Origin: Alphaproteobacteria bacterium
GTDB lineage: Bacteria; Pseudomonadota; Alphaproteobacteria; ATCC43930; CGMCC-115725
Reading direction: 5' to 3'
DNA: 64,000 nucleotides
NCBI GenBank assembly: GCA_028871455.1
Contig: JAGWNF010000001.1
Span: 108,349-172,348 of the forward strand
Shown: piece by piece, positions 3,971 through 47,467 of the stretch
Numbering within the stretch: position 1 is the stretch's first letter
Layout: the number at the start of each line of letters is the position of its first letter
Notes under the pieces: generated by a model
Told to the model about the DNA's origin: nothing
The model's database searches: none
The model's input: only the letters and a program-made list of their open reading frames with translations
Translations under genes and position numbers: made by a program

Positions 3971-6900
3971 GTGCATTTCGCCAAGCTCCGGCTCTCCGGC
4001 TTCAAATCCTTCGTCGACCCGACCGAACTCGTCATCGAGCCGGGTATGACCGGCATCGTCGGACCGAACGGCTGCGGCAAATCAAACATTCTCGACGCGA
4101 TGCGCTGGGTCATGGGCGAGACTTCGGCCAAGCGCCTGCGCGGCAGCGAAATGGACGATGTCATCTTCTCAGGCACCAGCGCACGACCGGCGCGCAACGT
4201 CGCCGAGGTGATGCTCCATCTCGACAATACGGTGCACGACGCGCCGCAGCCCTATCAGGCCCATAACGAGATCCAAATCCTGCGACGGATCGAGCGGGGC
4301 ATCGGCTCCGATTACCGCATCAATGACCACGAGGTGCGCGCGCGCGACGTGCAGCTGCTGTTCGCCGACGTCGCGACCGGCGCCAATTCGAGCGCCATCC
4401 TGAGCCAGGGCCGCATCGGCGCCATCATCAGCGCCAAGCCCGCCGACCGCCGGATGCTGCTGGAAGAGGCCGCGGGCATTGCCGGCCTACACTCGCGCCG
4501 CCACGAGGCCGAGCTGCGCCTCAAGGCCGCCGAAACCAATCTGGCGCGCCTCGACGACGTATTGCGCACGCTCGAGGCGCAGCTCGAAGGCCTCAAGAAG
4601 CAGGCCCGCCAGGCCCAGCGCTATCGTCGTCTGTCGGACTGGATCCGCCGCGCCGAGGCGACCGTGCTGCATCTGCGTTACGTCGCGGCAACTAGCGATC
4701 TCAATGCGGCGGAAGAGCGGCTGCGCGCCGCCGAACGCGTCGTCGCCGAGCGCACGACGGCGGCAGCGGCGGCGAACCGGTTGCGCGAAGCGGCCGCCGC
4801 CGACCTGCCACCGCTGCGTCAGAACGAGGCGGTTGCCTCGGCCGAGCTGCAACGCCTGACTCTGGCGCGTCAGGCGCTCGACGACGAAGAGCGCCGTATC
4901 ATGGCGGCACGCCAATCGGCCGAAGCGCGGCTCGAACAGCTGGCCGCCGACCTGAAACGCGAAGATGAGCTGGGTGCCGACGCCCGCGCCGCCCTGGCGC
5001 GGCTCGGCGAGGAGCGCCAGTCGCTCGTCGCGGCGCAGCAGGACGAACAGGCGGCGCAGGCGAAAGTCGCCGATGATCTGGCCCGCGCCGCCGCGGCGGT
5101 TGAGGCGCTCGACGCGCAGCTCACTGCGCTGACCGAGCGCGTTGCGGCCGAAGACGCGCGGCGTGCCGCGCTCTCGACGCGGATCACGGAAACGCAGGAG
5201 CGCCAGGCGCGGCTCAAGGATCGCGAGGATGAAATCGCGCGCCAGCGCGCCGCGCTTGAAGGCGAGGCCGGTGCTGGCGGCGTCGGCCCCGAGACCCTGG
5301 CAGCGCTCAAGGCGGCCGAAGGCGCGACCGAGGAAAGCCGCGCCGCGCTCGCGACCACCGAACAGGCGTTGGCGGAGGCACAAAAGGCCGAAGCCGAAGC
5401 GCGCGTCCCGCTCCAAACCGCTGAGATGAACCGCGCCAAGCTCAAGGCGGAGGGTGAGGCGCTCGAGGCGCTGCTCGCCAAGCCGGCGCAAGACAAGTGG
5501 CCGCCGGTGGTCGATGCCATCCAGGTAGCGCAAGGCTTCGAGGGGGCGCTTGGCGCGGCGCTCGGCGACGATCTCACGATGCCGACCGACGCCGCCGCGC
5601 CGGCACACTGGTTCGGCCTGCCCGATTACGCCGATGTGCCGCCGCTGCCAGCCGGCGTCGACCGGCTTTCGGCGCATGTCACAGCACCGTCAGCGCTGGC
5701 GCGGCGCCTCAACCAGATCGGGGTGGTGGCGACCGCCGCCGAGGGCGAACGGCTGCAGCCGGGGTTGCGTCCGGGCCAGCGCCTCGTCAGTCGCGACGGC
5801 GGCTTGTGGCGCTGGGACGGTTTCCGTCGCCTGCCCGGCGCACCGGCGGCCGCGACGCTGCGGCTCGAGCAGCGCCGTCGTCTGACCGAGCTTTCCCGCG
5901 AGCTGCGGGACGCCGAGGCCGAGCTGACAGCGCAGCGTGCAGCGCTCGATACGGCGCAGCGCCATCGCGCCGAGCGCACCGAAGCCGACCGCCAAGCGCG
6001 CCAGCGCGCTCGCGAAGCGCTCGATGCCCTGGCGGACATCCGCAACCACGAGGCCGAGTTGGCGCGCGCCGCCGCGGCCGTGGTATCGCGCCGCGCCGCG
6101 CTTGAAGAGGCGGTCCAACGGCTGCGGCTCGACCGCGGCGAGGCCGAGGCCGAAGCCGACACGGCCCGTGCCGCACTTGCGGCGCTGCCCGAGTCGGCGA
6201 AGGGCCGTGACGAGATTCAGGCCGCACGCGGCGCTCTGGCCGAGAAGCGCGCGCTGCAGCAGGCGCACCAGGGCGAGCATGATCGCCTGCTGCGCGAAGC
6301 GGCCGGGCGCACCGAACGGCTGGCCACGATCGGCGTCGAGCTGAACTCGTGGGAGCAGCGCGCCGAGGCCGCTGCGCGTCAGCGCCAGACGCTCGAGTGG
6401 CGCCGCGGCGAGCTTCACGCCGAGATCGAATCGTTGGCCAAGCGGCCGCAGGAAATCGCCGCCGAGCGCGACAAGCTGGCCGAAACCATCGCGGCATCGA
6501 CGGCGCGCCGCAATCAGGCGGCCGACGCGCTCGCCGCCAGCGAGGGCAAGCTCGCCGAAACCGACAAGGCCGCGCGCGCGGCCGAGGCCGCCGCAGGCGA
6601 GGCACGCGAAGAACGCGTGCGCGCCGAGGGCGGCCGCGACCAGTCGGTGCTCGCGCGCAAGACGATCGCCGACGCCATCGCCGAAAAGCTGCAAGCCACG
6701 CCCGACCAGGTTCTGGCCGCCGCCGGCATCGAAGCCGACGAGGAGCTGCCCGAGATCGGCGCAGCGACGACGCGGCTCGAGCGCCTGTTGCGCGAGCGCG
6801 AGAACATGGGGCCGGTCAACCTAGTCGCCGAACAGGAATCGCGCGAGATCGAGGAACGGCTCAACGGCCTCAATCGCGAGCGCGAGGATTTGACCGGCGC

Positions 6901-14034: not shown

Positions 14035-17000
14035 CTAGGCGCTGCCGTAGCCGCCGCCACCCGGCGTCTCGAGCACGAAAACGTCGCCCGGCGCGACATC
14101 GATCACCTGGGTGCCGTCGAATTCCTCGCGCGTGCCGTTGGCGCGCTCGATCCAGTTGCGCGCCACTGCACCCGGCGATCCGCCGGCAAGGCCGAACGGC
14201 GCGACGCGTCGGCGATCGCCGAGAATGGCCGCCATCATCGCTTCGCGGAATCGAATGCGCCGCACCGCCCCGTCGCCGCCGCGCCATTTTCCGGCGCCGC
14301 CGGAATTTTCGCGGATGGCAAAGCTTTCGAGCAGTACCGGAAAGCGCCATTCCAACACTTCCGGGTCTGTCAGGCGCGAATTCGTCATGTGGGTATGGAC
14401 CGCCGCGGTGCCGTCGAATCCCGGACCGGCGCCGGAGCCGCCACAGACCGTCTCGTAATACTGATAGCGTGCGTTGCCGAAGGTGAAATTGTTCATCGTG
14501 CCCTGCGACGCCGCCATCGCATCGAGCGCGGCGTAGAGCGTGTCGGTGATGCACTGCGAGGTCTCGACGTTGCCGGCAACCACCGCCGCGGGATAACGCG
14601 GGCTCAGCATCGAGCCGGCCGGAATGCGAATCTCGATCGGCACCAGGCAGCCGGCGTTCATCGGTATGTCGGATTCGACTAGCGTGCGGAAGACGTAGAG
14701 CACCGCCGCTTTGCACACCGCCTCCGGCGCGTTGAAGTTGGTCGGCAGCTGCGGGCTGGTGCCGGCGAAATCGACGACGGCGCGACGCGCCGCGTGGTCG
14801 ATCGTGACACGAGCCCGGATCACCGCGCCGGAATCCATCTCGCAGGCGTAATCACCGTCCTTCAGCCGACCCAGCACGCGCCTGACCGCTTCGGCGGCGT
14901 TGTCCTGAACGTGCGCCATATAGGCTTCGACCGCGTCGCGGCCGAAATGCCGAACCATGCGATGCAGTTCCTGCGTGCCTTTTTCGCAGGCGGCAATCTG
15001 CGCCTTGAAGTCGCCGATGTTCTGGTCGGGATTGCGCGCAGGATAGGGGCCGCTGGCAAGCAAGACACGCGTCTCCGCTTCGCGGAAGTGGCCGGCATCG
15101 ACCAGCAAAAAATTGTCGATCAGCACGCCTTCTTCTTCGATGGTGCGGCTCATGGGTGGCATCGAGCCGGGCGTTATGCCGCCGATATCCGCCTGATGGC
15201 CGCGCGACGCGACATAGAACAGCACCGGCCCCTCGCCCCGCTTATCGTCCTCGGCGAAGACCGGCGTAATCACCGTTACGTCCGGCAGATGGGTGCCACC
15301 GTTATAGGGCGCATTGAGGACATAGACGTCGCATGGCTTCATGCCGCGACCGTCAGCTTTCTGTCCGCGCGCGGCGATGACGCTCGCGATGCTCTCGCCC
15401 ATCGAGCCGAGATGTACCGGCATATGCGGCGCGTTAGCGATCAGGGCGCCGCTGCGGTCGAATAGCGCGCAGGAGAAATCGAGCCGCTCCTTGATGTTGA
15501 TCGAATAAGCGGTATTCCGGAGCGCGATGCCCATCTGCTCGGCAATCGACATGAACAGGTTGTTGAAAACCTCAAGCATCACTGGATCGACCTCGGTGCC
15601 GATCGCCACCGCACGCGGCCGCGGCACGACCCGCTCCAGGATCAAATAGCAATGCGCGTCCATGCGCGCGCGCCAACCCGGCTCGACCACCGTGGTAGCG
15701 GTATCTTCGACGACGATCGCGGGACCATCGATCACGTGGCCGGGCGCCAGCGCCGCACGCGCGTAAACCGGCGCGGCCCAGGTCTTTCCGGCGGTAAAAA
15801 CGCCGACGTGGTCGAGCGGAGCCGGCAGCGCGCCTGCCGCCGCGGGATAGACGCGATCGTCGGCACGACCAACGACGCCGATCGCCTCCACGCCGAGAGT
15901 TTCGACGACCAGTGGCTTGCCTTCGATGATAAAGCCGTAACGCTGCTTGTGTGCGGTGGAAAAATTCTCCTGCAGCCGTTCGACGTCATCGTAATCGACC
16001 ACCAGCGGCACATCGGTGCCTTCGTATTTCACGTGTGCCTTGCGCAGGACGACGATGTCTTCCGCGGCGATGCCCTGGGCGGCGAGTTCGGCCTTGGCGG
16101 CATCGATCAGCCGGCTGAGCACGGCATCGAACTCAGCCATCGCCGGCAGCGCGAGCCGCACCTCGACCGCCTGTTCCTTGAGGCTGCGGAGATCGGCCAA
16201 ACCCATGCCATAGGCCGACAGCACGCCGGCGAAGGGATGGATATAGATGCGCATCATGCCGAGCGCGTCCGCCACCTGGCAGGCATGCTGACCGCCGGCG
16301 CCGCCGAAACAGCACAGCGTGTATTCAGTCATGTCGTGGCCGCGCTCGATCGAAATTTTCTTGATCGCGTTAGCCATATTCTCGACGGCGATCTTGATGA
16401 AGCCGTCGGCGACTTCTACCAGCGTACGACGATGGCCCATCGCGCGCGCGACCGTCTCTGCGAGTGCCGTGAACTCGCGCTCGACGACGTCACGATCGAG
16501 CGGCTGGTCGCCGCGCGGACCGAAGACGTACGGAAAGAAGCGCGGTTGGATCTTACCGAGAATCACGTTGCAGTCGGTGACGGTTAGCGGACCGCCGTGG
16601 CGATAGCACGCCGGACCCGGTATGGCGCCAGCGGAATCCGGCCCGACACGAAAACGCGCGCCGTCGAAGGAGCAGATCGAGCCGCCGCCAGCCGCCACTG
16701 TGTTGATCTGCATCATCGGTGCGCGCAGGCGGACGCCCGCCACCAGAGTCTCGAAGCTGCGCTCGTACTCGCCGGCATAGTGCGAGACATCGGTCGACGT
16801 GCCGCCCATGTCGAAGGCGATGATCTTGCCGAAGCCGCCGATCTCGGCGGTGCGCGCGGCACCGACAATGCCGCCTGCCGGACCCGACAGGATCGCGTCC
16901 TTACCGTGGAAGCGATGGGCGTCGATCAGGCCGCCGTTCGATTGCATGAAAAACAGCCGCACGCCCTGGAGCTCCGTGGCGACCTGATCGACATAACGTC

Positions 17001-17655
17001 GCAGGATCGGCGAGAGATAGGCGTCGACGACCGTCGTATCCCCGCGGCTTACCAGCTTCATCAGCGGACTGATTGCGTGGCTTGCGGAGACCTGGTCGAA
17101 GCCGACGCGACGCGCGAGGTCCGCGACGAGACGTTCGTGCGCCGGATAGCGATAGCCGTGCATGAAGACGATGGCGGCGCTGCGACAACCGGCGTCATAG
17201 GCCGCTCGGAGTGCGACCTCAGCAGTCGCGAGATCGGGAACGCACAGCACTTCGCCTTCGGCCGTCACGCGCTCGTCGATTTCGACGACGCGCTCGTAGA
17301 CCAGGTCCGGCAAGACGATGTGGCGCTCGAACAACTTGGGCCGGTTCTGGTAGCCGATACGCAGCGCGTCGCGAAATCCCTTGGTGACGACGAGGACGGT
17401 GCGCTCGCCCTTGCGTTCGAGCAGCGCATTGGTCGCGACCGTCGTGCCCATCTTGACCGAATCGATGACGTCGCTGGGCAGCTGCGTCGTCGGCATGACA
17501 CCCAGCAGCTCGCGAATGCCGGCCACCGCCGCGTCACGATAGCGGTCGGGGTTCTCGGACAGCAGCTTCTTAGTGACGAGCGTTCCGTCGGGCTGCCGTG
17601 CGACTATGTCGGTGAAGGTACCGCCGCGATCGATCCAGAATTGCCAACCCGGCAT
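14035..17655 (-). CDS. Fused HyuA-HyuB hydantoinase / 5-oxoprolinase
   Basis: ATP-dependent amidohydrolase of about 1206 aa with both halves in one chain, like eukaryotic 5-oxoprolinase. The HyuA half (to about residue 680) starts [21 protein letters not shown] with the actin-like phosphate loop, followed by [17 protein letters not shown] and [11 protein letters not shown]. The HyuB half starts near [20 protein letters not shown] and has [30 protein letters not shown] and the C-terminal [11 protein letters not shown] 17655 gives the usual short family N-terminus; ATG 17691 would overlap the small gene upstream. It opens 5-oxoproline, hydantoins or a similar lactam. The bacterial two-gene form is also common. 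Confidence 0.9.
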
Positions 17656-17668
17656 CGGGGCGCGGTGT

Positions 17669-17812
17669 TTAGTGCGCGGATCCGTGACCATGATGACCGT
17701 GCGACGCGTTGTCGGCGGTCTGTCCCGCGTCACGGCCGGGAATGGCCGCAAGGCAAAGCGCGACCACGGCGCTGCCGAGAACGAAGAACAACACGCCGAT
17801 CGCGAAGGACAT
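17669..17812 (-). CDS. Unrecognised 47-residue membrane protein with a His-rich tail
   Basis: I do not recognise this gene. It begins [20 protein letters not shown], a single membrane segment or uncleaved signal, continues [16 protein letters not shown] and ends [11 protein letters not shown], with five His in the last eleven residues. GGGAG lies about six bases before ATG, a good ribosome binding site. It ends 13 bp before the oxoprolinase start, so the two are probably co-transcribed, and it is divergent from the amidase gene. The tail would face the periplasm if the N-terminus stays inside; metal binding is a guess from the His residues. Confidence 0.5.
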
Positions 17813-17881
17813 GGCTCTCTCCCTTGTTACGGAGATCATGGCTGCTGCGAGGCCTTTCCGCTAGGCTCTCGCACACCGCCT

Positions 17882-18580
17882 ATGCGCATCGTCGACCAGC
17901 TTTCGCCCAACCACGATGCCCGTATGGGCGCGATCGACATGCTGATCCTCCACTACACTGGGATGCTCGACTGCGCCGCGGCGTTGGCGCGGCTGACCGA
18001 CCCGTCGGCCAAGGTGAGCGCCCATTACCTGATCGGCGAGGACGGCGCGGTGTTCCGGCTCGTGCCAGAAGAACGCCGGGCCTGGCACGCGGGCGTGTCG
18101 TATTGGGCCGGCCGTCGCGACATCAATGACCTGTCGATCGGCATCGAGTTGGTCAATCCCGGGCACGAGTTCGGTTATCACGATTTTCCGCCGCCGCAGA
18201 TGGAGGCGCTCGTCGCGCTCGCCATCGACATCCGGCAGCGGCATCGTATTCCAGACCGGTGCGTGCTGGGTCATTCCGATGTCGCCATCGGCCGCAAGCA
18301 GGATCCGGGCGAGCGCTTCGACTGGCGTTGGTTGGCGCGTCGCGGTATCGGCCTGTGGCCGGATTTCGGCGGCGGGTCGACGCGTTCGGGCAGCATCGCC
18401 GAACTGCAACGCGATCTCGCGAAGTTCGGCTACGACTGTCCCCAGACCGGCATCGCCGACGAGGCGACCCGCGCCGCAGTGCGCGCGTTCCAGCTGCATT
18501 TCCGGCCGGACCGCTGCGACGGCACGGCTGACGACGAGACCCGACGCCGCGCCGCGGTGCTCGCGGCCACAGTCGTTTGA
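17882..18580 (+). CDS. N-acetylmuramoyl-L-alanine amidase, AmpD-like, with peptidoglycan-binding domain
   Basis: Zn amidase of the Amidase_2/PGRP fold, 232 aa. Zinc ligands fit the AmpD pattern: His24 in LILHYTGM, and His131 and Asp141 in GHSDVAIGRKQDPG, ten residues apart as in AmpD. A C-terminal peptidoglycan-binding domain (about residues 170-230: IAELQRDLAKFGYDCPQTGIADEATRAAVRAFQLHF) suggests it acts on wall or large muropeptides. No clear signal peptide is seen, so cytoplasmic recycling of anhydro-muropeptides is the default. ATG 17882 gives MRIVDQLSPNHDAR; the frame extends upstream into the reverse-strand genes. Confidence 0.88.
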   Translation: MRIVDQLSPNHDARMGAIDMLILHYTGMLDCAAALARLTDPSAKVSAHYLIGEDGAVFRLVPEERRAWHAGVSYWAGRRDINDLSIGIELVNPGHEFGYHDFPPPQMEALVALAIDIRQRHRIPDRCVLGHSDVAIGRKQDPGERFDWRWLARRGIGLWPDFGGGSTRSGSIAELQRDLAKFGYDCPQTGIADEATRAAVRAFQLHFRPDRCDGTADDETRRRAAVLAATVV

Positions 18581-18610: not shown

Positions 18611-19005
18611 TGCCAGACGGCCGGATGGCCGCTCCCCGTCGTAAGGCGGGGGGAGGAAAGTCCGGGCTCCACGGAAACGCGGTGCCGGGTAACGCCCGGC
18701 GGGGGCGACCCCAGGGAAAGTGCCACAGAAACACACCGCCTAAGCCCTTCGGGGCCGGCAAGGGTGAAATGGTGCGGTAAGAGCGCACCGCGCCGCCGGT
18801 AACGGCGGTGGCAGGGCAAACCACACCGGGAGCAAGACCAAGTAGGGACGGCATGCCCTGTAAGTCCTTGGATTTACATGGCAAGGCGGGTTTCCGAGGC
18901 CGCCGTCCGGGTCGGTCGCGTGAGGCGTCCGGCGACGGGCGTCCCAGATGAATGGCCATCCCCCGCGTCAGCGGGGACAGAACCCGGCTTACAGGCTGTC
19001 TGGCA
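18611..19005 (+). ncRNA. rnpB: RNase P RNA, class A
   Basis: This is the catalytic RNA that trims tRNA 5' leaders. The universally conserved region GAGGAAAGTCCGGGCTCC is at 18653-18670. The region ACAGAACCCGGCTTACAG is near the 3' end (18977-18994). The ends pair as helix P1: TGCCAGAC at 18611-18618 with GTCTGGCA at 18998-19005, which sets the borders. Length is about 395 nt, normal for bacterial class A. It is placed between an amidase gene and mraZ. No protein coding is implied by frames crossing it. Confidence 0.95.
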
Positions 19006-19008
19006 TTT

Positions 19009-46344: not shown

Positions 46345-46488
46345 GTGAAGAACGTTAAATGGGGTTTGGTCATGCTGCTCACCGGAGTACTTTTCCTGGC
46401 GCTCGTCGTTGGAGTTGCCGGCCTGGCGTTCGATAGCGTTGCCGACGGCTCCGAAGAGGACCGCAAGGGGTCGCCGCACCGACGGTAA
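46345..46488 (+). CDS. Small single-span membrane protein, unrecognised
   Basis: I do not recognise this 47 aa frame. From GTG 46345 it reads KNVKWGLVMLLTGVLFLALV, one clear membrane helix, then VGVAGLAFDSVADGSEEDRKGSPHRR, a charged tail. ATG 46372 would give 38 aa and cut the helix only slightly; GGGG lies before both. It lies between the DUF1127 gene and the CDF gene on the same strand. Coding is plausible because the helix-plus-charged-tail layout is coherent, but there is no family support. Confidence 0.4.
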   Translation: MKNVKWGLVMLLTGVLFLALVVGVAGLAFDSVADGSEEDRKGSPHRR

Positions 46489-46492
46489 TCAA

Positions 46493-46532
46493 GGGCCATA
46501 GCGGCCCCTCGCCTTGCCTCCGAATCGGAGGC
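46493..46532 (+). repeat. Two hairpins before the CDF transporter gene
   Basis: GGGCC (46493-46497) pairs with GGCCC (46503-46507). GCCTCCGA (46516-46523) and TCGGAGGC (46525-46532) are perfect complements around one base, and a GANTC site (GAATC 46522-46526) is at the centre. The right arm contains GGAGG, the only good ribosome binding sequence before the CDF start at 46544, so folding could hide it. Confidence 0.4.
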
Positions 46533-46543
46533 AGATTAGGGCG

Positions 46544-47467
46544 ATGGGGTCCGCGCATATCCCACATCGTCACGCGCATCACGGCGCCGCAGGCCACGCG
46601 GCGCCGTTTGCGTTGGCGCTCGCGCTCAATCTTGCTTTTGTTGGCGCCGAGACCGCCTACGGCCTGATCGGCGGGTCGATGGCGCTGCTCGCCGATGCCG
46701 GCCACAATTTTGGCGACGCCATGGGCTTGGCCGCCGCCTTCGTCGCCGCGCGATTGGCGCGGCGCGAGCCCAGTCACCGCTTCACCTATGGCCTCGGCAG
46801 CTCGTCGATCCTGGCGGCATTGCTCAACGCCATCATCCTCCTGATCGCGGTCGGCGCCATTGCCACCGAAGCGATTCAGCGTCTGATTGCGCCGACGCCC
46901 GTCGCCGGCGGCACGGTGATCGCCGTGGCGCTGGCCGGCGTCATCGTCAACGGCGCCGTCGCGCTACTGCTGTCGCGAGCCGGCCATCGCCATGATCTCA
47001 ACGTCAAGAGCGCGCTGGCGCACGCGTTAGGTGATGCTGGCGTCAGCTTGGGCGTCGCGGCTTCCGGCGCGGTCGTCGTGGCGACCGGTTGGCTCTGGCT
47101 CGATCCGGCGGTCAGCCTGATCATCGCCGCCGTCATCGTCGCCGGCACCTGGCGGCTGCTGCGGCGCAGCCTCGCCATGGCGCTTCACGCCGTGCCGCAT
47201 GAGATCGATCCGGCCGCGGTGCGCGCCCAGCTCGCGGCGATGCCCGGCGTCGCCGCCGTGCACGATCTCCATATCTGGCCGATGAGCACGACCGAGACGG
47301 CATTGACCGTCCATCTCGTCATGCCGGACGGCCATCCGGGCGACGCCGCGCTGGCCCGGCTCATCGGCGAGCTCGACCGACGCTTCGCCATCGGCCACGC
47401 CACCGTCCAGATCGAGACCGGCGACGGCGAGCTGGTCTGTCCGCTGGTATCGGAGCGCGTGGTCTAG
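46544..47467 (+). CDS. Cation diffusion facilitator metal exporter
   Basis: CDF family, proton-coupled export of Zn or similar divalent metals. The 307 aa protein has a His-rich N-terminus (HIPHRHAHHGAAGH), six membrane helices and a cytoplasmic C-terminal ferredoxin-like domain. Metal site residues appear in ADAGHNFGDAMG (helix 2) and AHALGDAGVS (helix 5), the H-x-x-x-D pattern of Zn/Cd transporters. The helix 4-5 loop is not unusually His-rich. ATG 46544 is preferred to TTG 46514. It ends tail-to-tail with uppP through a CTAG shared by both stops. Confidence 0.9.
   Translation: MGSAHIPHRHAHHGAAGHAAPFALALALNLAFVGAETAYGLIGGSMALLADAGHNFGDAMGLAAAFVAARLARREPSHRFTYGLGSSSILAALLNAIILLIAVGAIATEAIQRLIAPTPVAGGTVIAVALAGVIVNGAVALLLSRAGHRHDLNVKSALAHALGDAGVSLGVAASGAVVVATGWLWLDPAVSLIIAAVIVAGTWRLLRRSLAMALHAVPHEIDPAAVRAQLAAMPGVAAVHDLHIWPMSTTETALTVHLVMPDGHPGDAALARLIGELDRRFAIGHATVQIETGDGELVCPLVSERVV

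What the first reader, a model, noticed from the sequence alone, without database searches (positions are those of the whole stretch)
17669..17812. New 47-residue membrane protein with a His-rich tail ahead of an oxoprolinase
A good Shine-Dalgarno, a single hydrophobic helix and a C-terminal [11 protein letters not shown] form a coherent small protein that automatic pipelines are likely to miss. It sits 13 bp before a large ATP-dependent lactamase, suggesting co-expression. It might be a metal-binding or regulatory membrane peptide, possibly supporting a metal-dependent step or transporter.
Basis: partly seen in the sequence, partly recalled or inferred. Interest (0 to 1): 0.5.

Follow-up and report, generated by a model that had tools for sequence, protein, structure and literature searches.

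The report
Lineage-restricted small membrane protein gene
The small predicted membrane protein is a real, conserved gene found in two bacterial genera, but it is not tied to the enzyme gene beside it and its job is unknown.

Summary
The 47-codon frame is present as described: minus strand, ATG at 17812, TAA at 17671-17669, 13 nt before the 5-oxoprolinase ATG. It is a real gene. Relatives occur in 7 of 39 family genomes searched: 3 of 4 of its own genus g1 and 4 of 4 of genus g7. They share one hydrophobic helix, a C-L-x-A-I-P-G edge, a strong Shine-Dalgarno and a short His/Gly tail. Third codon positions change in excess within g1 and over all seven. In the fourth g1 genome the contig begins inside the oxoprolinase, so it says nothing. 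Outside these genera nothing convincing was found.

The oxoprolinase link is local. In g7 the gene follows a pair of alpha/beta hydrolases, and 13 of 13 readable close oxoprolinase loci outside g1 lack it. So it is probably a stand-alone small inner-membrane protein, not an oxoprolinase partner. In g1 the shared oxoprolinase start has no Shine-Dalgarno in 3 of 3 genomes, so the small frame may also couple translation to oxoprolinase there (inferred). Metal binding is possible but unshown: tail His number runs from 2 to 5, and one His-Gly pair aligns in all. Ordinary overall: an orphan family of a known kind.

The parts
17669..17812 (-). small membrane protein gene, 47 aa: helix residues 2-22, C-L-x-A-I-P-G edge at 20-26, His/Gly-rich tail 37-47
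   Evidence: relatives; helix 2-22 in the AlphaFold2 model, block means of pLDDT 94 and 95 over residues 1-20, then 68, 53 and 59
17816..17823 (-). Shine-Dalgarno of the small gene (GGGAGAGA, a few bases before the ATG)
   Evidence: strong in all 7 relatives (-6.2 to -11.7 kcal/mol)
17813..17881 (.). 69-nt intergenic stretch to the divergent amidase gene, the same length in the three readable g1 genomes; presumably holds both promoters (inferred)
   Evidence: gap lengths from positions; alignment; the consensus promoter scan found none
14035..17655 (-). fused HyuA/HyuB 5-oxoprolinase, 1206 aa; start without a Shine-Dalgarno in g1
   Evidence: (PF05378, PF01968, PF19278, PF02538)
17656..17668 (-). 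13-nt gap between the small gene's stop and the oxoprolinase ATG
   Evidence: 16 nt in G035 and G036
17882..18580 (+). N-acetylmuramoyl-L-alanine amidase with a peptidoglycan-binding domain, divergent neighbour
   Evidence: PF01510, PF01471, residues 17882-18577 given

Best explanation
A real small membrane protein gene of a lineage-restricted family. Shown: the frame, its strong ribosome-binding site, its conservation, its codon-position bias and its occurrence in two unrelated gene neighbourhoods. Inferred: it is translated and inserts as a single helix in the inner membrane, with the short uncharged N-terminus inside and the His/Gly tail in the periplasm, and acts by helix-helix contact (the conserved C-L-x-A-I-P-G edge) on a membrane partner encoded elsewhere, not on the soluble oxoprolinase. 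Inferred second, cis role in genus g1 only: because the shared oxoprolinase start there has no Shine-Dalgarno and lies 13-16 nt behind the small gene's stop, ribosomes that finish the small frame probably re-initiate on the oxoprolinase, so the small gene sets its translation.
For: Relatives in 7 of 39 family genomes, at E 4.3e-24 to 2.4e-18 with the profile, with invariant M1 F3 L12 G13 A18 C20 L21 A23 I24 P25 G26 H43 G44. Third-position excess: 18 of 30 minimum changes in g1, 100 of 100,000 shuffles as high; all seven, 30 of 59, 122 of 100,000. pN/pS 0.24-0.28 within g1. Amino-acid identity of 0.665 over 26 codons was reached in 0 of 2000 neutral star-tree simulations. Strong Shine-Dalgarno 7 of 7. 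Two contexts: oxoprolinase in g1, alpha/beta hydrolase in g7. Confident helix 2-22. At the oxoprolinase start shared by g1 the duplex energy is +1.9, -1.7 and +0.7 kcal/mol; of 14 genomes outside g1 with a readable start, 13 have a candidate start at -2.9 or lower and 5 at -6.2 or lower.
Against: No expression data. The family is small (7 sequences) and narrow. Within g7 alone the codon bias is weaker (15 of 31, 3192 of 100,000), and one g7 pair has pN/pS 1.08. Openness alone says little: 763 of 2000 neutral simulations kept all seven open. For coupling: 9 of 14 oxoprolinases outside g1 also fall short of -6.2 (G013 +0.4), 2 of 4 cell-wall genes of this window have only -3.8 and -4.3, and the window's oxoprolinase has a further in-frame ATG at 17691, inside the small gene, at -2.4; so a missing Shine-Dalgarno does not prove coupling. 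The membrane partner is unidentified and the topology is only inferred.
Confidence: 0.6

Rival explanations
1. Metal-handling membrane peptide: the His/Gly tail binds Zn, Ni, Co or Cu in the periplasm and serves a transporter or metalloenzyme.
For: All 7 members end in a His/Gly-rich tail with 2 to 5 His; the tail is predicted flexible. The divergent g1 neighbour is an Amidase_2 protein, a family with zinc enzymes (recalled), and in G019 a gene that looks LigB-like, a type of iron dioxygenase, lies before the hydrolases (my reading of L028).
Against: Number and spacing of His vary; one His and its following Gly align in all. I saw no metal transporter directly beside the gene in the g1 and g7 loci read (by eye). 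No significant Pfam or NCBIfam match. The amidase is not beside the gene in g7.
Confidence: 0.2
2. Dedicated accessory or anchor of the oxoprolinase.
For: Adjacent, same strand, 13-16 nt gap in 3 of 3 readable g1 genomes.
Against: 4 of 4 g7 genomes carry the gene after an alpha/beta hydrolase instead; 13 of 13 readable close oxoprolinase loci outside g1 lack it.
Confidence: 0.06
3. Leader frame only: translation in g1 matters for coupling to oxoprolinase, the peptide itself does nothing.
For: No Shine-Dalgarno at the shared oxoprolinase start in g1 and a strong one at the small frame.
Against: Amino-acid sequence is conserved between g1 and g7, where the frame follows a hydrolase and leads into no oxoprolinase.
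Confidence: 0.06
4. Small hydrophobic toxin of the kind held silent by an RNA antitoxin.
For: Size and single helix only.
Against: Good ribosome-binding site directly before the gene, tight linkage to enzyme genes, one strong match per genome. No Rfam match here at gathering scores: the two in the window are RNase P and a tRNA.
Confidence: 0.03
5. Chance open frame.
For: Antisense and shifted frames are also long in this GC-rich DNA, and 763 of 2000 neutral simulations keep seven open frames.
Against: Conservation, codon-position bias and sense-frame identity 0.665 against 0.425-0.564 in the five other frames.
Confidence: 0.01

Closest known systems
Small single-pass bacterial membrane proteins of under 50 aa (YohP and others; starts of abstracts seen in the listing: PMC7549839, PMC12719787, PMC11539335)
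   Same: Size, one helix, no enzyme-like domain, function mostly unknown.
   Different: No sequence comparison with any of them was made; the C-L-x-A-I-P-G edge and the His/Gly tail are the marks of this set of seven.
CbtB, small cobalt-transport protein with a His-containing end (recalled, not fetched)
   Same: Recalled layout: one membrane helix, His motif near the C-terminus.
   Different: No such family among the Pfam or NCBIfam matches of the 7 members at E up to 10 (that these libraries hold a CbtB model is recalled); no cobalt transporter seen next to the gene.
CydX/YbgT-type small oxidase subunits (recalled)
   Same: Short single-helix protein of about 40 aa.
   Different: No such family among the matches (that a model is held is recalled); no oxidase genes seen beside it.

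Membership tests
Small single-pass membrane proteins (descriptive kind) | about 50 aa or less with one hydrophobic helix | tested here: met
   40-47 aa in 7 of 7; hydropathy peak 2.69 in the window; helix 2-22, with a second, low-confidence helix 29-35
Small single-pass membrane proteins (descriptive kind) | located in the membrane | not testable with these tools
   needs fractionation
CbtB | match to the family profile | tested here: not met
   no such family among matches up to E 10 for 7 members; the filters drop most matches above 0.1, and the presence of the model is recalled
CydX/YbgT | match to the family profile | tested here: not met
   with the same caveats
Oxoprolinase accessory | constant linkage to the oxoprolinase gene | tested here: not met
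   3 of 3 readable in g1, 0 of 13 readable outside g1, other context in 4 of 4 g7
Metal-binding peptide | binds metal through the tail | not testable with these tools
   His number 2 to 5; one H-G pair aligned in all
5-oxoprolinase (the neighbour) | Hydant_A_N, Hydantoinase_A, Hydant_A_C and Hydantoinase_B in one chain | tested here: met

The most novel reading that the evidence does not exclude
A lineage-specific small membrane protein whose gene moves between enzyme operons and, on arrival, can become their translational lead gene: in g1 the oxoprolinase has lost its own ribosome-binding site and depends on the small membrane protein's frame, so synthesis of a soluble enzyme is tied to synthesis of a membrane peptide.
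Probability: 0.2. Interest if true: 0.5.

Novelty: new member of a known kind. Interest (0 to 1): 0.3.

Why it matters
It adds an orphan family, verified by conservation, to the list of small membrane proteins and shows that proximity to an enzyme gene misleads about function: the gene keeps its sequence while its neighbours change. If the coupling idea holds, it gives a clean natural test of how a small frame takes over translation of the next gene.

Tried and rejected
Wider relatives. The profile gave only weak matches beyond the seven: 8 rows at E 0.0039-0.088 in 43 order genomes and 9 rows at E 5.6e-4 to 0.0094 in 385 class genomes. All 17 loci were read by eye. They are mostly pieces of longer frames or signal-peptide-like stretches, and none joins the helix to a His/Gly tail (for the four loci with an unusual length the script printed several candidate places). 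I dropped them. One of them, L060, is a short frame with a hydrophobic stretch but no His. Three weak rows (E 0.08-0.09) were dropped after reading them. Two rows in 398 phylum genomes (E 9.9e-5 and 3.2e-4) have a stop inside; I take them as out-of-frame readings of another gene. Caveat: at most 19 and 18 candidates per genome were scored, and both samples were drawn from larger groups, so misses are possible. Viral contigs gave 20 pattern matches, none a relative. Plasmids gave none. Phage records and metagenome contigs were not searched.

Promoter scan of 17600-17950 found nothing, which means little outside sigma-70 consensus. Trees of the oxoprolinase (19 rows) and the amidase (20 rows, chosen from the 32 genomes matched) leave the kinship of g1 and g7 open: g1+g7 as one clade is in 0% of 200 amidase bootstrap trees, but holding them together is not rejected (p-AU 0.176). 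So one origin with relocation, or transfer, cannot be told apart.

Weak library matches TIGR02611 (2 of 7, E 0.018), IncMemCPSIT0556 (1 of 7, E 0.11), Bap31 and Neurensin (1 of 7 each, E 0.12 and 0.21) were set aside as helix-composition matches. No PDB match. Literature: two searches. One search listed 15 of 125 papers; I saw titles and starts of abstracts, and none of the 15 names such a family. One search returned 0 papers. No paper was opened.

Full report
What was checked. The next gene starts at ATG 17655, 13 nt on, and encodes a 1206-residue fused HyuA/HyuB 5-oxoprolinase. On the other side, 69 nt away and divergent, is an N-acetylmuramoyl-L-alanine amidase. A longer reading of 56 residues from ATG 17839 exists. 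I prefer 17812 because the g7 relatives start at the equivalent Met with a Shine-Dalgarno just before it, directly after another gene's stop codon.

Is it more than chance? Of 319 frames of 30-80 residues in the window, 3 have a strongly hydrophobic 19-residue stretch (hydropathy 2.0 or more). Only this one also has three or more His in its last 15 residues; 20 simulated windows (10,482 such frames) gave none. That alone is modest evidence, since the features were picked after the fact. The conservation is decisive.

Relatives. A single-sequence search of the 39 family genomes held found 7 true members: the window's genome G000, two of its three genus-mates (G035, G036), and all four genomes of genus g7 (G017-G020). 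The profile gave all seven E 2.4e-18 or better and added no further convincing one (43 genomes of the order). The missing genus-mate G034 is uninformative: its oxoprolinase match begins at base 3 of a contig, at query residue 32, so the place of the small gene is off the contig, and its amidase was not found either.

Anatomy. Thirteen positions are invariant in the seven: M1, F3, L12, G13, A18, C20, L21, A23, I24, P25, G26, H43 and G44. The helix with its C-L-x-A-I-P-G edge is the constant core. The tail keeps its type (His, Gly, often Pro) but not its length or His number, which is 2 to 5 (read). AlphaFold2 gives a helix at 2-22 with high confidence (block means 94 and 95) and a tail with block means 53-68, in which a second helix at 29-35 is drawn with low confidence. 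No significant Pfam or NCBIfam relative and no PDB match. I infer N-in, tail-out from the absence of charge at the N-terminus and the acidic flank after the helix in g7; this is weak.

Selection. Over the 26 gap-free codons, pN/pS is 0.24, 0.27 and 0.28 for the three g1 pairs and lies between 0.11 and 1.08 for the others. Minimum changes fall at third positions in 18 of 30 cases in g1, 15 of 31 in g7 and 30 of 59 overall; shuffles of columns reach these in 100, 3192 and 122 of 100,000. Amino-acid identity is 0.665 in the sense frame and 0.425-0.564 in the five others; 0 of 2000 neutral star-tree simulations at the same nucleotide identity reach it. In the same simulations 763 of 2000 kept all seven frames open, so openness by itself is no argument. 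The star tree is a simplification and pairs share ancestry, so these numbers are guides.

Neighbourhoods. In g1 the small gene lies 69 nt from the amidase and 13-16 nt before the oxoprolinase in 3 of 3 readable genomes. In g7 it lies 11-16 nt after the second of two alpha/beta hydrolase genes in 4 of 4 (the hydrolase name is my reading of the sequence, no library search was made). The close oxoprolinase of those genomes is on another contig. Of 19 close oxoprolinase loci read, two lack the start (G034, G033) and one (G037) has almost no upstream DNA. Of the 16 others, 3 of 3 in g1 and 0 of 13 outside g1 have the small gene upstream. The script looked for hydrophobic frames (peak above 1.6) on the same strand within 1200 nt; outside g1 it listed four unrelated ones, of which a 40-residue frame in G016, 72 nt before the conserved motif, is the nearest in size and place but has no His tail. 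The whole-genome searches agree. The hydrolase itself was not found in the four g1 genomes at E 1e-60. Its orthologues in g2 and g8 have no such frame after them in 10 of 10 readable loci (2 of 12 could not be read; two unrelated hydrophobic frames were seen further down). The gene therefore keeps its sequence while its neighbours differ, which argues against a role specific to either enzyme. Whether it moved within a common lineage or was transferred is open, since trees do not resolve g1 and g7.

A cis role in g1. Duplex energy with the anti-Shine-Dalgarno is -6.2 to -11.7 kcal/mol before the small gene in 7 of 7 genomes (background 5% quantile -6.2). At the only start shared by the g1 oxoprolinases it is +1.9, -1.7 and +0.7 (background median -2.4); the window alone has a further in-frame ATG at 17691, inside the small gene, at -2.4. 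Outside g1, 14 genomes have a readable start: taking the best candidate start of each, 5 reach -6.2 (G020, G018, G037, G010, G015), 8 lie between -5.6 and -2.9, and G013 is at +0.4. Two of four cell-wall genes of the window checked the same way have only -3.8 and -4.3. With a stop-to-start gap of 13-16 nt, re-initiation by ribosomes leaving the small frame is a simple reading. This is inference.

Verdict. The finding is ordinary in kind, with one testable extra, translational coupling in g1.

Noticed in passing
window 46345-46485 (+): A second 47-residue small membrane-protein frame lies just before a gene that I read as a cation-diffusion-facilitator transporter (46514-47467, + strand, no library search made). 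It matches 2 places in G000 (its own and one more) and 2 in G036, and none in the other 37 family genomes at E 0.001.
   Followed up: partly
window 18613-19007 (+): Bacterial RNase P RNA, class A, 299 bits, between the amidase and the mra/fts cell-wall genes (cell-wall gene names by my reading).
   Followed up: no
L025, about 5165-5232: After the small gene in G020 there is a GC-rich inverted repeat (CCCGCGAAAGCGGG type) that looks like a dispersed intergenic repeat (read).
   Followed up: no
window 17842-17831 and 17866-17855: Two 12-base runs before the small gene (GCCATGATCTCC and GCCTAGCGGAAA on the minus strand) are unchanged in the three g1 genomes, although they lie outside the likely coding frames; they may belong to a promoter, an operator or a ribosome-binding site.
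   Followed up: no
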